Positions 59,952-64,000 of a stretch of DNA of 64,000 nucleotides are shown piece by piece; position 1 is the first letter of the stretch, and each line of letters opens with the position of its first letter. The DNA comes from Acidimicrobiales bacterium (GTDB lineage Bacteria; Actinomycetota; Acidimicrobiia; Acidimicrobiales; JAVJTC01). The translations under genes were made by a program, and so were the position numbers. The notes below the pieces were generated by a model. That model had not been told where the DNA came from and did no database searches. It saw only the letters and a program-made list of their open reading frames with translations. The stretch spans positions 21,668-85,667 of the forward strand of contig JAVJTC010000011.1 of assembly GCA_040219085.1 (NCBI GenBank), given 5' to 3'.

Positions 59952-60103
59952 GAAGGCGACCCTGTGGACCGCAGGATCCCGACACTTCCGACCTCTGTAA
60001 CGACGCGCCGGCACGCTGCCACACGCAGGTGTAGCGTGCGCGCCATGGGGCCGTAGCGACGTCATCTCGACCCACCGCCCGGTCCAATCGGGAGGAGTTG
60101 CCC

Positions 60104-61243
60104 ATGAGAACCTTCGCAGCACTGTTCGTGGCGGTTGCCGTCCTGGCCTCAGGTTTCGGTACCGCGAATGCCCTGCAGCTCGCGGGGCCTGGCCCGGGCC
60201 CGAGGCTGACCGTCGTCGCCGACGGGCTGAACAACCCCCGCGGTCTCACGCTGAGCCCGTGGAACACACTGTTCGTGGCCGAGTCCGGTCGCGGCGGCAC
60301 CGACTTCTGTTTCGTGACCGAGGGGCCGGAAGGCGGCGAGACCTGCTTCGGGCAGACCGGCTCGGTCGCTGAGGTGACCCTGTCGGGCGGTCTGGTCCGT
60401 CGCGTGGCGGATCGTCTGCCGTCCGCGGCGGCGCCCGACGGAAGCGAGGGCGGCGGCCCCTCGGACGTGGCGTTCGACGAACACGGACGCCTGCTCGTGA
60501 GCATGGGCCTCGGCGCCGGCGCAACTGAACGGGCGGAGGTCGCCGCCGGGCTCCCCTACGCAGCACGCTTCGGCACCGTCCTGATCCGCAAGGATCCGAT
60601 GCGCGGCGGATTCAGGGTCCTCGGTGACCCCGCCGCCTTCGAGGAGACGGACCCCGATGGAGCAGGCCCGGATTCGAACCCGAACTCGCTCGTGAGTGAG
60701 GCAGGCCGTGTGGTCGTGGCGGATGCCGGCGGGAACTCTCTCGTCAGGGTTCACAGCGACGGGCGGGTGGAAGCGATCGCGACGTTCCCCACCCAGATGC
60801 AACCGAACCCGTTCGGCCCGGGTCAGATTCCGGCGCAGGCGGTCCCGACGAGCGTCGTGCGCGGGCCGGACAACCGGTACTACGTGGGCCAGTTGACCGG
60901 CTTCCCATTCGCACCGGGCTCCGCGAACGTCTACCGGGTGGACCCGGGGACCGGCGCCATGGACGCGTACGCGACAGGCTTCACGAACATCATGGACCTC
61001 GCCTTCGGCCCGGACGGCAGTCTCTACGTGCTGGAACTCTCCACGGGTGGACTGCTCAGCGACACGTTGGGAGCGCTGTGGCGGCTCGCTCCAGGCGGCG
61101 GCGACAAGGGCGACGCGGAGCTCCTGATGGACGGCCTGTTCTTCCCCGGTGGCCTCTACGTTTCGCAGGGCGGACGGATCTTCATGACCGTCAACAGCAT
61201 CCTCACCGGCGCCGGCCAGGTGGTCGAGCTCACCGGCGTCTGA
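60104..61243 (+). CDS. Secreted ScyD/ScyE-like beta-propeller protein
   Basis: The 379-residue protein has a cleavable signal peptide (ending near ANALQ), then LTVVADGLNNPRGLTLSPWNT and repeated NHL-like blades such as PSDVAFDEHGRLLVSMG and IMDLAFGPDGSLYVLE. The ScyD/ScyE family was named from the cyanobacterial scytonemin cluster; related actinobacterial proteins have no known role. The ATG follows GGAGGAGTTGCCC. A strong hairpin lies 21 bases after the stop. Confidence 0.83.
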   Translation: MRTFAALFVAVAVLASGFGTANALQLAGPGPGPRLTVVADGLNNPRGLTLSPWNTLFVAESGRGGTDFCFVTEGPEGGETCFGQTGSVAEVTLSGGLVRRVADRLPSAAAPDGSEGGGPSDVAFDEHGRLLVSMGLGAGATERAEVAAGLPYAARFGTVLIRKDPMRGGFRVLGDPAAFEETDPDGAGPDSNPNSLVSEAGRVVVADAGGNSLVRVHSDGRVEAIATFPTQMQPNPFGPGQIPAQAVPTSVVRGPDNRYYVGQLTGFPFAPGSANVYRVDPGTGAMDAYATGFTNIMDLAFGPDGSLYVLELSTGGLLSDTLGALWRLAPGGGDKGDAELLMDGLFFPGGLYVSQGGRIFMTVNSILTGAGQVVELTGV

Positions 61244-61264
61244 CCCCGGGACTGATCAGGTGAA

Positions 61265-61309
61265 GGGCGGGTCCGCCGCCGCGGTTGACTCCGCGGCTCG
61301 GACCCGCCC
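61265..61309 (+). terminator. Terminator hairpin after the ScyD-like gene
   Basis: GGGCGGGTCCG pairs with CGGACCCGCCC, and inside it two CCGCGG copies pair again, making a long GC-rich stem. The remaining gap to 61454 holds no gene that I can support. Confidence 0.75.
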
Positions 61310-61454
61310 TGTGGCGGGCCCGTGCGGGCAGTTCGGCCCGCGCGTGCCGCTCCTCGACGGGTTCGTAATCCGCAACCTGTCAGGCTGGCCCATCCCGTCC
61401 GTGCCGTAGGGCGAGGCATCCGTCCAATCGACTCCTCGCTCGCTGAACCGAGGG

Positions 61455-61721
61455 CTAGCTATCTGCGACGGGCTCGACCTCGCCGGTGAAGGCATCGACG
61501 ACATCTCGCTCCCCCAGTGGGGCGCCAAGAACGACGCTGGCCGAGTTACCCACGTCGCACTCCTCCTTGCGGACAGGGACTCTGATGAGCACATCCTCCG
61601 AGCTCTCGTCGACATCGACGTCGTTCTCCGCTTTGCAGGAATCGACCCCGGCGAGTGGCACAACGATCAACAGGACGATCACGACGGCGAACAGGATGCC
61701 GACCGCGGCGACCTCCCTCAC
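61455..61721 (-). CDS. Small single-span membrane protein
   Basis: The 88-residue protein starts at a GTG that overlaps the upstream stop (GTGA). It has one membrane segment or uncleaved signal (VGILFAVVIVLLIVVPLAGV) and an acidic outer domain with two Cys (DSCKAEN, EECDVGN) that could pair. The family is not recognised. Tight coupling to the lipoprotein gene suggests that the two outer proteins act together. Confidence 0.65.
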   Translation of the reverse strand: MREVAAVGILFAVVIVLLIVVPLAGVDSCKAENDVDVDESSEDVLIRVPVRKEECDVGNSASVVLGAPLGERDVVDAFTGEVEPVADS

Positions 61722-62365
61722 CCGGGCACCGCCACGAGCATCGCTTCGGTGACCTCTGCGATCTTCATGGTCGTCGCGATGTCGGGCTGCAGGCCCGGGC
61801 ACGAGAGTTCGACGGTGTCACCGCGTTCACAGATGAGGGAACCGGCAAGAGCGATCCCGTAGAGGTCCGGCTCGTAGTCGAAGACCACGCTGGGTTGGAG
61901 GAAGAACACGAACGACCGGTCCTCCAGGTCCCTTCGGAACACCTGGGTCTCAGCAGCTGTGTCGACCGTGAGCCCCGCCACCACCTCGTCGCCCGCCGAT
62001 ACGGAGACGTCGGCCGCCGCTGCGACGACATGGTTCACCCGGAGCGTCAGGTGAACCGAGCGGACCTCGGCCTCCTCGTCGTCGAACGCGACGATGCGGC
62101 GCAGCTCGTTCTCTTCGTCGTCGAAGGTCCAGAACATGCCGACGCCGTTGGCCACCTCGGCGACGGTCGCTTCGACAATCACCCGGCCGGGCTGCTGGGG
62201 CTCGGTGAGGATCTCGACCAGTGTCCCGTCGACATCGAGGACGTCGAGCTTGTCCTGGCGATCGCGGATCAGACCGAACGCCGTGTCGTCGGTTGCCGTC
62301 GGAGCCGCCGAACCACATGCCGCTGCTACGAAGGCGATGAGAATCACGATGGGCGACAATCTCAC
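61718..62365 (-). CDS. Hypothetical lipoprotein
   Basis: The 215-residue protein has a signal peptide with lipobox VAAAC and a beta-rich outer domain (LDVLDVDGTLVEILTE, VRSVHLTLRVNHVV, SFVFFLQPSVVFDYEPD) with a Cys pair (LICERG, ELSCPG). No family is recognised. The GTG at 62365 is chosen because it gives a standard lipoprotein signal and follows AAAGGGCG. It overlaps the next gene by four bases. Confidence 0.65.
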   Translation of the reverse strand: MRLSPIVILIAFVAAACGSAAPTATDDTAFGLIRDRQDKLDVLDVDGTLVEILTEPQQPGRVIVEATVAEVANGVGMFWTFDDEENELRRIVAFDDEEAEVRSVHLTLRVNHVVAAAADVSVSAGDEVVAGLTVDTAAETQVFRRDLEDRSFVFFLQPSVVFDYEPDLYGIALAGSLICERGDTVELSCPGLQPDIATTMKIAEVTEAMLVAVPG

Positions 62366-62488
62366 AGCGGCTCGCCCTTTCGTGAACCACTCGGCACCAT
62401 TGGCGCGATTGTCGCACCGAGCGGGCGCGGCCATTAGTCACAGAACCACTTCGCGCGTCAACTGCAACAGTCGTCAGACGAGTGACGG

Positions 62489-62968
62489 TCAGAGGTGCTG
62501 CGGGAGGATCTCGGCGATCTCCTCGGGGGTGACCTGTGGATCGAACCGGGCGATCACGTGCCCGTCACGGCCGACGAGGAACTTGGCGAAGTTCCAGGTG
62601 ATGTCGCCGTGGTCGTCGTCGCCGGGTGCGTCCGCCTTCAAGAAGTCGTACAGCGGGGCGGCGCCGTCTCCGTTGACCTCGATCTTGGAGAACATCGGGA
62701 ACGTGACATCGTAGTTGGAGGTCGCGAACTCGAGGACCTCGGCGTCGGTGCCCGGCTCCTGTGCGCCGAACTGGTTGCACGGGAAGGCGAGTACGGCGAA
62801 ACCGGCATCGGCGTTGTCTTCGTGGAGGGTACGCAGACCTGCGTACTGGGGGGTCAGACCTCAGCGGCTGGCGACGTTGACGACGAGGCACACGGTGCCC
62901 TCGTAGTCCGCCAGATCGACGTCGTCGCCGGTGATCGATGTCATGTGGAAGTCATGCATGGTCGTCAT
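62489..62968 (-). CDS. Selenocysteine-containing glutathione peroxidase (in-frame TGA)
   Basis: The 159-residue protein is a complete glutathione peroxidase if the TGA at 62863-62861 is read as selenocysteine (U36). The active site reads VNVASR-U-GLTPQY. Gln70 (FGAQEPG) and Trp125/Asn126 (WNFAKFLVGRDG) complete the catalytic tetrad, and LAFPCNQFG is intact. The resolving Cys of thioredoxin-type enzymes (near EFCSLNYGVTFP) is Ala82, as in selenium GPx. A SECIS-like hairpin starts 14 bases after the TGA. A TACGCT box seven bases before the ATG at 62968 supports this start. Ordinary gene calling would split it and keep only 62489-62695. It reduces peroxides; SelA/B/C must be encoded elsewhere. 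Confidence 0.93.
62829..62846 (-). promoter_or_regulatory. Bacterial SECIS element
   Basis: On the mRNA, GUACGCA-GGUC-UGCGUAC forms a perfect 7-bp stem with a GGUC loop; the loop begins 21 bases after the UGA. The apical part GCAGGUCUGC is the same as in the E. coli fdhF SECIS as I know it, which is bound by SelB. Distance and loop fit the bacterial rules. Confidence 0.88.
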
Positions 62969-62975
62969 GGATGAG

Positions 62976-62981
62976 AGCGTA
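62976..62981 (-). promoter_or_regulatory. Putative -10 box of the selenoprotein gene
   Basis: TACGCT on the minus strand ends seven bases before the ATG at 62968. Confidence 0.5.
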
Positions 62982-63030
62982 GGCGCTGGCCGGCACCGGA
63001 CTCGCCCCGTGAAGTGGGTTCGTTCTTGAT

Positions 63031-63612
63031 TCACTCGGACGGCAGGGCTTCCGAGGACAGCAGTCTGTTCAGGCGCCGAAGAGCCCGGGCCTGGAGCTCC
63101 TTGACGGCGCTGAGCGAACGGCCCGTGATGTCCGCCACCTCCCAGAGGCGGAGGTCGGCGACGAAGCGCAGAGCGAGGACCTCACGCTGGTCCTCGGTGA
63201 GTCGGCCGAGCGCCTCCACGAGGTCCGGGTCCGGCCCTGACGACGCCGGCAGACCTGGTGTGGAATCAACCATGTCGGCCCGTAGATCCTCACGGTCGGC
63301 CGGGCCACCTTCGGCTTCGGCGACCTTGCGGTGCGCGGTGGCGAATACCCACCGTCGCAACGCCACCCGGTCGCCTCTGAAGCCGTCGAGATCCCGGGCG
63401 ACCTCGTAGAAGACCTCGCCGAGAACGTTCTCGGGATCCGGCAACCGATGCGCCCGGATGTAGCCGAGGACGGCGGGCGAGAACAGTCTGTACAGGTCAC
63501 CTGCATCCTCCAGGGGAAGCTCGACGACCTCGGCATCGCCACTGTCCGGAGGCGGCGTGGCGTCACCGCTGGCTTCCGGGGTCGGGGTCGGCGTCGACCG
63601 TTGGTCGGTCAT
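63031..63612 (-). CDS. ECF-type sigma-70 factor
   Basis: The 193-residue protein has a Thr/Pro-rich start (about 35 residues), sigma region 2 (DLYRLFSPAVLGYIRAH...VLGEVFYEVARDLDGFRGD, LRRWVFATAHRKV) and region 4 (LGRLTEDQREVLALRFVADL, WEVADITGRSLSAVKELQARALRRL). It is a small ECF sigma. No ZAS anti-sigma lies downstream; the gene before it, overlapping by ATGA, encodes the collagen-like repeat protein. The -10 element would be upstream of that gene, beyond the window. Confidence 0.87.
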   Translation of the reverse strand: MTDQRSTPTPTPEASGDATPPPDSGDAEVVELPLEDAGDLYRLFSPAVLGYIRAHRLPDPENVLGEVFYEVARDLDGFRGDRVALRRWVFATAHRKVAEAEGGPADREDLRADMVDSTPGLPASSGPDPDLVEALGRLTEDQREVLALRFVADLRLWEVADITGRSLSAVKELQARALRRLNRLLSSEALPSE

Positions 63613-64000
63613 TTCGGGCCGCCCTTCCCGGCGGGCGGACCCGCATGATCCGGCGGCCCCGCACCCTCCGGCGGCCCAGCACCCTCCGGCGGACCAGCAC
63701 CCTCCGGCGGACCAGCATGATCCGGCGGACCAGCACCCTCAGGCGGCCCAGCATGATCCGGCGGACCAGCATGATCCGGCGGACCAGCACCCTCAGGCGG
63801 CCCAGCATGATCGGGAGGCCCCGCACCCTCCGGCGGACCAGCACCCTCAGGCGGACCAGCATGATCCGGCGGACCAGCACCCTCAGGCGGCCCAGCATGA
63901 TCGGGAGGCCCCGCACCCTCCGGCGGACCAGCACCCTCAGGCGGCCCAGCATGATCCGGCGGCCCAGCATGATCCGGCGGCCCCGCATGATCCGGCGGAC
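63609..64000 (-). CDS. Collagen-like Gly-Pro-Pro repeat protein (3' part, cut by window edge)
   Basis: The last 130 codons of a gene that continues beyond the window encode about 20 tandem hexapeptides, GPPDHA and GPPEGA, ending PPAGKGGPK. The Gly-Pro-Pro rhythm recalls collagen-like tails, though the six-residue unit has Gly only every sixth position, so a true triple helix is doubtful. The stop overlaps the sigma factor ATG (ATGA), so the two are translated together. The N-terminal domain is not visible and the function is unknown. Confidence 0.75.
   Translation of the reverse strand, partial: PPDHAGPPDHAGPPDHAGPPEGAGPPEGAGPPDHAGPPEGAGPPDHAGPPEGAGPPEGAGPPDHAGPPEGAGPPDHAGPPDHAGPPEGAGPPDHAGPPEGAGPPEGAGPPEGAGPPDHAGPPAGKGGPK
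63635..64000 (-). repeat. 18-bp tandem repeat array with 90-bp higher-order copy
   Basis: About 20 contiguous 18-base units of the type CCGGCGGACCAGCATGAT or CCGGCGGACCAGCACCCT fill the region. A block of five units is repeated with a 90-base period (63781 onward and 63871 onward, with one mismatch over about 90 bases). All units are in frame for the hexapeptide protein. Confidence 0.9.

What the first reader, a model, noticed from the sequence alone, without database searches (positions are those of the whole stretch)
62489..62968. Selenoprotein glutathione peroxidase hidden by an in-frame TGA
The frame is continuous on both sides of one TGA, which falls exactly at the catalytic position of glutathione peroxidase (NVASR-U-GLTPQY). 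All tetrad residues are present (U36, Q70, W125, N126), and the resolving Cys of the Cys-type, thioredoxin-dependent enzymes is absent (Ala82). Selenocysteine GPx enzymes are rare in bacteria, and this one would be reported as a truncated 68-residue protein by standard tools.
Basis: partly seen in the sequence, partly recalled or inferred. Interest (0 to 1): 0.95.

Follow-up and report, generated by a model that had tools for sequence, protein, structure and literature searches.

The report
Bacterial selenocysteine glutathione peroxidase
This gene reads on through one TGA codon that sits at the catalytic position of a glutathione peroxidase, is followed by a predicted hairpin with the same core as one E. 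coli uses to insert selenocysteine, and lies in a genome that carries the genes for selenocysteine insertion, so it is predicted to make a selenium-based peroxidase of a kind already listed in bacteria; a glutathione peroxidase gene with one TGA turned up in 54 of 397 genomes of its order.

Summary
Confirmed, on the minus strand: a 159-codon GPx frame broken only by TGA36, at the catalytic codon. The genome has tRNA-Sec, selA-selB and selD (itself with an in-frame TGA). 18 nt after TGA36 begins GCAGGTCTGC, the core of the E. coli fdhF SECIS, inside a seven-pair stem; 46 of 48 TGA-type loci, own included, have it exactly, over nearly fixed synonymous codons. In 397 genomes of the order (Acidimicrobiales by named kin), 54 show a GPx with one TGA; 51 of these have tRNA-Sec, against 61 of 157 other GPx genomes. 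All 47 Sec rows in the tree lack the resolving Cys; 80 of 82 Cys rows have it. The two exceptions lie inside the Sec clade, one with a damaged SECIS: likely Sec-to-Cys reversions. The clade spans Actinomycetota, Gammaproteobacteria and a deltaproteobacterial MAG. Bacterial Sec-GPx is a listed family, so this is a new member of a known kind. The reductant is open: no GshB was found; an MshA-like gene and an ambiguous MshC/CysS-like gene make mycothiol plausible. Sec insertion itself is predicted, not shown.

The parts
62489..62968 (-). Sec-type glutathione peroxidase gene, 159 codons plus stop TGA (62489-62491); one frame through TGA36
   Evidence: 'one TGA inside'
62861..62863 (-). in-frame TGA, predicted Sec36, at the catalytic Cys/Sec position
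   Evidence: TGA at this codon in all 32 same-order TGA loci whose codons were read
62829..62846 (-). SECIS-like hairpin GTACGCA-GGTC-TGCGTAC; the 10-nt core GCAGGTCTGC begins 18 nt after the TGA
   Evidence: same core as E. coli fdhF; codons nearly fixed
62723..62725 (-). Ala82 codon, where the order's Cys-type GPx enzymes have the resolving Cys
63031..63612 (-). neighbour: sigma-70 region 4 protein, upstream on the same strand; not found beside the other Sec-GPx loci examined
61718..62434 (-). neighbour: putative exported protein without a Pfam match, downstream on the same strand; not found beside the other Sec-GPx loci examined

Best explanation
The gene at 62489-62968 (minus strand) is a glutathione-peroxidase frame with one TGA at the catalytic codon and a predicted SECIS-like hairpin behind it, and that TGA is predicted to be read as selenocysteine by the host's own SelA, SelB, tRNA-Sec and SelD. 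Inferred steps: SelB carrying Sec-tRNA binds the GGUC-loop hairpin and inserts Sec36 instead of terminating; the selenolate, held by Gln70, Trp125 and Asn126, reduces hydroperoxides to alcohols or water; with no resolving Cys at the usual place, the selenenic acid would be reduced by two molecules of a low-molecular-weight thiol (perhaps mycothiol in this host) or by a redoxin, rather than through an internal disulfide. The enzyme belongs to one Sec-GPx clade that spans several phyla and keeps its SECIS almost letter for letter.
For: TGA at the catalytic codon within a full GPx domain. Sec machinery in the own genome: tRNA-Sec, selB (13), selA (16), selD (14), all over their cut-offs; selD also has an in-frame TGA (GUACKLG), followed 27 nt later by GCGCAGGTCCTGCGC. 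SECIS: 46 of 48 TGA-type loci (own included) have GCAGGTCTGC, 43 of 48 keep all seven pairs (G-T counted), L135 changes one pair on both sides (G-C to A-T) with the loop kept; the core equals that of E. coli fdhF. Codons +5 to +10 have majority-codon shares of 0.93-1.00, against a median of 0.67 at 41 other conserved codons, 3 of which reach 0.9 (47 rows; Mann-Whitney p 5e-5). 51 of 54 TGA-GPx genomes have tRNA-Sec versus 61 of the 157 other GPx genomes. 0 of 47 Sec rows and 80 of 82 Cys rows have the resolving Cys, and the two Cys exceptions fall inside the Sec clade. AlphaFold model pLDDT 83.9, with poplar GPx5 and human GPX4 as top fold matches.
Against: No direct evidence of expression or of Sec incorporation. 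3 of 54 TGA-GPx genomes show no tRNA-Sec (G169, G177, G391; listed at 83-88% complete). The 10-nt core alone is not rare: 26 sites in the own genome against 18 for the reversed control. The hairpin lacks the bulged U of the fdhF SECIS (the bulge is recalled, not tested). L089 has TGA but a changed core (GCCGGGTTGC); three loci have an A-C mismatch at pair 3 and one (L162) at pair 1. The computed fold of the selD stretch pairs only GCAG with CTGC there and puts a stronger stem nearer its TGA. The examined TGA loci do not share a neighbourhood, so context gives no support. The mycothiol step is weak: MshA-like is below its cut-off, and the best MshC-like protein is below the MshC cut-off but above that of CysS.
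Confidence: 0.94

Rival explanations
1. The TGA is a nonsense mutation or sequencing error in an ordinary Cys-GPx; the gene is a pseudogene.
For: Only that a TGA interrupts the frame and a mechanical lister truncates it.
Against: 54 of 397 genomes show a GPx with one TGA, single-contig genomes among them, at the catalytic codon in all 32 that were read; the rest of the frame is conserved; a hairpin with nearly fixed codons follows; resolving Cys absent in 47 of 47 Sec rows.
Confidence: 0.01
2. The TGA is read through with another residue (for example Trp by a near-cognate tRNA, or a general TGA reassignment).
For: None found.
Against: A Sec tRNA and SelA/B/D exist; the gene itself ends in TGA, so TGA still seems to stop; the TGA aligns to the catalytic Cys of GPx, where Trp would be expected to be useless; the hairpin carries the fdhF SECIS core.
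Confidence: 0.02
3. It is a Sec-GPx, but its reductant is glutathione taken up or made by an unrecognised route, as in animal GPX4.
For: Top fold matches include human GPX4; no resolving Cys, as in the aligned GPX4; Pfam and NCBIfam names say glutathione.
Against: The only GSH-S_ATP match in the own genome is a RimK-family protein. GshA-type and GshF-type genes and transporters were not searched.
Confidence: 0.25
4. It is a Sec-GPx reduced by thioredoxin or a mycoredoxin through the Sec itself, not by a low-molecular-weight thiol.
For: Cys-type GPx enzymes of this order keep the resolving Cys expected of redoxin-dependent enzymes, so redoxins probably serve these relatives.
Against: The resolving Cys is absent in all 47 Sec rows.
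Confidence: 0.33

Closest known systems
Bacterial Sec GPx-like selenoprotein (PF00255, UxxT; Treponema denticola and marine GOS sequences)
   Same: GPx domain with Sec at the catalytic position. The 2006 survey's tables give one bacterial Sec-GPx and list Gpx for T. denticola; the 2008 ocean survey's table gives 40 for GPx (read as selenoprotein sequences); 2022 and 2026 reviews list the family (passages only of PMC1794560, PMC2398784, PMC9312934, PMC13188914).
   Different: The passages seen name no actinobacterial Sec-GPx; here 54 of 397 genomes of an actinobacterial order show a TGA-GPx. The T. denticola sequence was not compared.
Human GPX4 (phospholipid hydroperoxide glutathione peroxidase)
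   Same: Fold (TM by query length 0.87-0.91, 44-47% identity in the listed structural alignments); the aligned Sec/Cys site, Gln and Trp-Asn, and no Cys at the resolving site.
   Different: Bacterial-type SECIS inside the coding sequence; host without a detected GshB.
Cys-type, redoxin-dependent GPx (poplar GPx5 2p5q; the order's own Cys GPx)
   Same: Best PDB sequence hit and top fold hit is poplar GPx5; same domain.
   Different: Those of the order have Cys in place of Sec and, where readable, a resolving Cys (19 of 20; the other is frame-broken); 18 of 19 in the tree lie in a separate clade, support 99.
E. coli fdhF SECIS
   Same: Identical 10-nt core GCAGGUCUGC, behind the Sec codon.
   Different: Core starts 18 rather than 15 nt after the UGA; seven-pair stem GUACGCA/UGCGUAC without the bulged U that I recall for fdhF.

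Membership tests
Selenocysteine-type glutathione peroxidase (bacterial selenoprotein) | GSHPx domain | tested here: met
   PF00255 E 2.2e-40, profile 1-108 of 108; model pLDDT 83.9, top fold matches GPx5 and GPX4
Selenocysteine-type glutathione peroxidase (bacterial selenoprotein) | in-frame TGA aligned to the catalytic Cys/Sec, with the Gln/Trp/Asn partners | tested here: met
   U36, Q70, W125, N126
Selenocysteine-type glutathione peroxidase (bacterial selenoprotein) | SECIS hairpin closely downstream of the TGA | tested here: met
   hairpin with core 18 nt after TGA, core identical to fdhF, conserved with nearly fixed codons and one two-sided pair change; function not tested
Selenocysteine-type glutathione peroxidase (bacterial selenoprotein) | selA, selB, selC, selD in the genome | tested here: met
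Selenocysteine-type glutathione peroxidase (bacterial selenoprotein) | Sec present in the protein | not testable with these tools
   needs mass spectrometry or 75Se labelling
Glutathione-dependent peroxidase (by substrate) | uses glutathione, and the host makes it | tested here: inconclusive
   no GshB (PF02955 hit is RimK-family); other glutathione genes not searched; activity not testable
Thioredoxin-dependent (Cys-type) GPx | resolving Cys in the FC..TYG block | tested here: not met
   Ala82; 0 of 47 Sec rows have Cys there
Mycothiol-using enzyme | host makes mycothiol | tested here: inconclusive
   MshA-like 385 bits (cut-off 462.5, next hit 105); MshC-like 421 bits (cut-off 485.1), but the same protein scores 352 for CysS, over that cut-off of 340; MshB, MshD and Mca not searched

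The most novel reading that the evidence does not exclude
A mobile selenoperoxidase: one Sec-GPx lineage with an almost invariant built-in SECIS has crossed between Actinomycetota, Gammaproteobacteria and deltaproteobacteria, and in glutathione-poor actinobacteria it has become a mycothiol-dependent selenoperoxidase, the actinobacterial counterpart of GPX4. When the SECIS decays the gene falls back to Cys without regaining the usual resolving Cys.
Probability: 0.32. Interest if true: 0.65.

Novelty: new member of a known kind. Interest (0 to 1): 0.45.

Why it matters
Standard gene calling would cut this enzyme at the Sec codon, so Sec-GPx is likely to be missed in actinobacterial genomes, where it is frequent in this order (54 of 397 genomes). 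The set gives a clean natural contrast, Sec without a resolving Cys versus Cys with one, and a transitional case (L083: Cys codon, no resolving Cys, damaged SECIS) on which to test what a protein must change when selenium is lost. If mycothiol proves to be the reductant, it would define a selenium-dependent mycothiol peroxidase.

Tried and rejected
Rejected: pseudogene or read error (conserved TGA, conserved hairpin, single-contig relatives); TGA reassignment (the gene ends in TGA; Sec machinery present). Rfam scan of 60000-64000 gave four matches, all far below their gathering scores (E 4 or more). The scan for GCAGGTCTGC in the own genome gave 26 sites (reversed control 18); with an upstream TGA in an open frame, five site-frame pairs passed a loose filter: the GPx, a second frame of the same site, L066, L072 and L077; judged by eye only, none but the GPx looked like a gene frame. 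This does not find SECIS with other cores, such as that of selD. The neighbouring sigma factor and putative exported protein were tested as partners: neither was found beside the other 48 Sec loci examined (one of these a duplicate; most flanks only 1.5-3 kb). Relatives on viral contigs: the best 80 of 291 are all Cys-type. Rows dropped: L046-L048 (fragments or weak) from the tree; L179 as a duplicate of L082; L090 (TGA type) missed by the motif filter of the tree but counted for the SECIS. Of 54 TGA genomes, codons were read in 32 (L179 among them); the other 22 are known only from the 'one TGA inside' column. The match list was cut at about 150 rows, so weaker TGA cases may be missing, and the 157 other GPx genomes include some whose rows were not shown. 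Literature searches were seen as listings; passages were read of six papers.

Full report
What is there. The window's minus strand carries, from 62968 down to 62489, a frame of 159 codons plus a stop that is broken only by TGA at codon 36 (62861-62863). Translated with TGA as Sec it is a complete glutathione peroxidase: Pfam GSHPx, E 2.2e-40, whole profile, best solved relatives poplar GPx5 (E 1.7e-42) and GPX4. Sec36, Gln70, Trp125 and Asn126 occupy the catalytic positions; position 82, where the order's Cys-type enzymes have their resolving Cys, is Ala. An AlphaFold model from seven sequences (pLDDT 83.9, pTM 0.83) matches poplar GPx5 (TM 0.90) and human GPX4 (0.87-0.91) best. A mechanical ORF lister reports only the 68-residue tail of this frame.

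The machinery. The window's assembly (3.77 Mb, 45 contigs, 96.4% complete) has tRNA-Sec (64.9 bits, gathering score 47; ARAGORN tRNA-SeC, anticodon tca), selB (283.8 bits, cut-off 242.25), selA directly upstream of selB (382.8 bits, cut-off 267.9) and selD (341.5 bits, cut-off 125). selD has one in-frame TGA, GUACKLG, so the organism probably has at least two selenoproteins.

The SECIS. The selD gene has GCGCAGGTCCTGCGC 27 nt behind its TGA; the computed fold there pairs GCAG with CTGC but also shows a stronger stem nearer the TGA. Among 48 distinct TGA-type loci (32 from genomes of the order, own included, and 17 named records, less one duplicate) 46 have the exact 10-nt core, 47 the loop GGTC, 43 all seven pairs with G-T allowed. 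L135 replaces one G-C pair by A-T on both sides with the loop kept; L089 has lost the core; three loci have an A-C mismatch at pair 3 and L162 one at pair 1. The codons under the hairpin (CAG TAC GCA GGT CTG CGT) are nearly fixed: majority shares 0.93-1.00, against a median of 0.67 at 41 other conserved codons, 3 of which reach 0.9 (47 rows, p 5e-5; a first test on seven loci gave 5 of 6 against 11 of 48, p 0.007). None of 82 Cys-type loci has the core within 60 nt of the catalytic codon. The 10-mer alone is not rare: 26 sites in the own genome, 18 for the reversed control.

Distribution. In 40 genomes, own included, each from a different family of the order, 25 had a GPx match; after the window's own gene the six best had one TGA inside. 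In a 397-genome draw from the order (own included), 211 have a GPx match and 54 show one TGA inside, single-contig genomes among them. tRNA-Sec over the cut-off is found in 240 of the same 397: in 51 of the 54 TGA genomes and in 61 of the 157 other GPx genomes (Fisher p 6e-14; against all 343 other genomes, 189 with tRNA-Sec, p 3e-9; relatedness of genomes is not corrected for). The three TGA genomes without tRNA-Sec are listed as 83-88% complete. One of the 17, L088, lies in a 4.3-Mb record titled as a chromosome that also has a tRNA-Sec (72.6 bits), which argues against a mis-binned contig there; the other MAG contigs were not checked.

Evolution. In a tree of 129 rows without the catalytic and resolving columns (quick method, SH-aLRT only), all 47 Sec rows and two Cys rows form one group (96); 19 Cys rows, 18 of them from the order, form another (99), and one Cys row of the order, L027, lies elsewhere. 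At the resolving position the Sec rows have Ala 36, Val 10, Ile 1; 80 of 82 Cys rows have Cys. The two exceptions are exactly the two Cys rows inside the Sec group. One, L083, has TGT and a stretch CAATACGCAGGTCTTTGTAC in which the loop and the 5' arm but for its first base are kept while the 3' arm has changed (predicted fold -2.1 kcal/mol, against -9.5 for the window's gene); the other, L092, has no recognisable core but a Cys three residues before the usual site. I read both as Sec-to-Cys reversions; direction is inferred, since the tree is not rooted. Transfer between phyla is likely, since the order's Sec enzymes and most of its Cys enzymes are far apart, but ancient duplication with losses is not excluded.

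How it likely works. Shown: sequence, predicted hairpin, machinery genes, conservation. Inferred: Sec insertion by SelB, and peroxide reduction through a selenenic acid. Without a resolving Cys at the usual place the oxidised Sec would be reduced from outside. The only GSH-S_ATP hit in the genome is a RimK-family protein, so no GshB was found. One MshA-like protein stands far above all others (385 bits, next 105) but below the cut-off of 462.5. The best MshC-like protein scores 421 bits for MshC (cut-off 485.1, not reached) and 352 for CysS (cut-off 340, reached), while a second, better CysS (474 bits) exists; so mycothiol synthesis is suggested, not established. A 2013 review says the mycothiol pathway is present in Acidimicrobium ferrooxidans (passages of PMC4255298).

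Known or new. Passages read: a 2006 survey's tables give one bacterial Sec-GPx and list Gpx for Treponema denticola (PMC1794560); a 2008 ocean survey's table gives 40 for GPx, which I read as selenoprotein sequences (PMC2398784); reviews of 2022 and 2026 list the GPX-like family, the latter as predicted with high confidence (PMC9312934, PMC13188914). The 2016 survey's main text holds neither 'GPx' nor 'glutathione peroxidase' (PMC5029168). A search for Acidimicrobi- with selenocysteine listed three papers, none about this by title; listings for resolving Cys with SECIS and for gene transfer of Sec-GPx showed nothing on this clade by title. So the kind is known; its frequency in this order, the near-identical SECIS across phyla and the reversion case were not met in these searches of an open-licence library.

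Noticed in passing
L018:1477-2577 (own genome, contig C17): selD is itself a predicted selenoprotein: in-frame TGA in GUACKLG, followed 27 nt later by GCGCAGGTCCTGCGC, which resembles the GPx hairpin.
   Followed up: partly
L083 (Gammaproteobacteria MAG, JAPOOX010000086.1): Cys-type GPx inside the Sec clade with no Cys at the usual resolving site and a stretch that keeps the SECIS loop and most of its 5' arm but not the 3' arm: a likely recent Sec-to-Cys reversion.
   Followed up: partly
window 63634-64000: Tandem array of an 18-base unit (GGCGGACCAGCACCATCC, about 20 copies, also seen as 36 and 54) running to the window end, just upstream of the sigma-70 region 4 gene.
   Followed up: no
order survey: tRNA-Sec is over its cut-off in 240 of 397 genomes of the order, far more than the 54 that show a TGA-GPx, so other selenoproteins are likely common in this group.
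   Followed up: no
L203-L282 (viral contig collection): 291 stretches of IMG/VR contigs encode GPx relatives; the best 80 all have Cys at the catalytic site. Some lie at contig ends and may be host DNA.
   Followed up: partly
L049 and L051 (own genome): Two MshC/CysS-like proteins besides a better CysS (L050); the role of the second (304 bits for MshC, 277 for CysS, below both cut-offs) is unclear.
   Followed up: no
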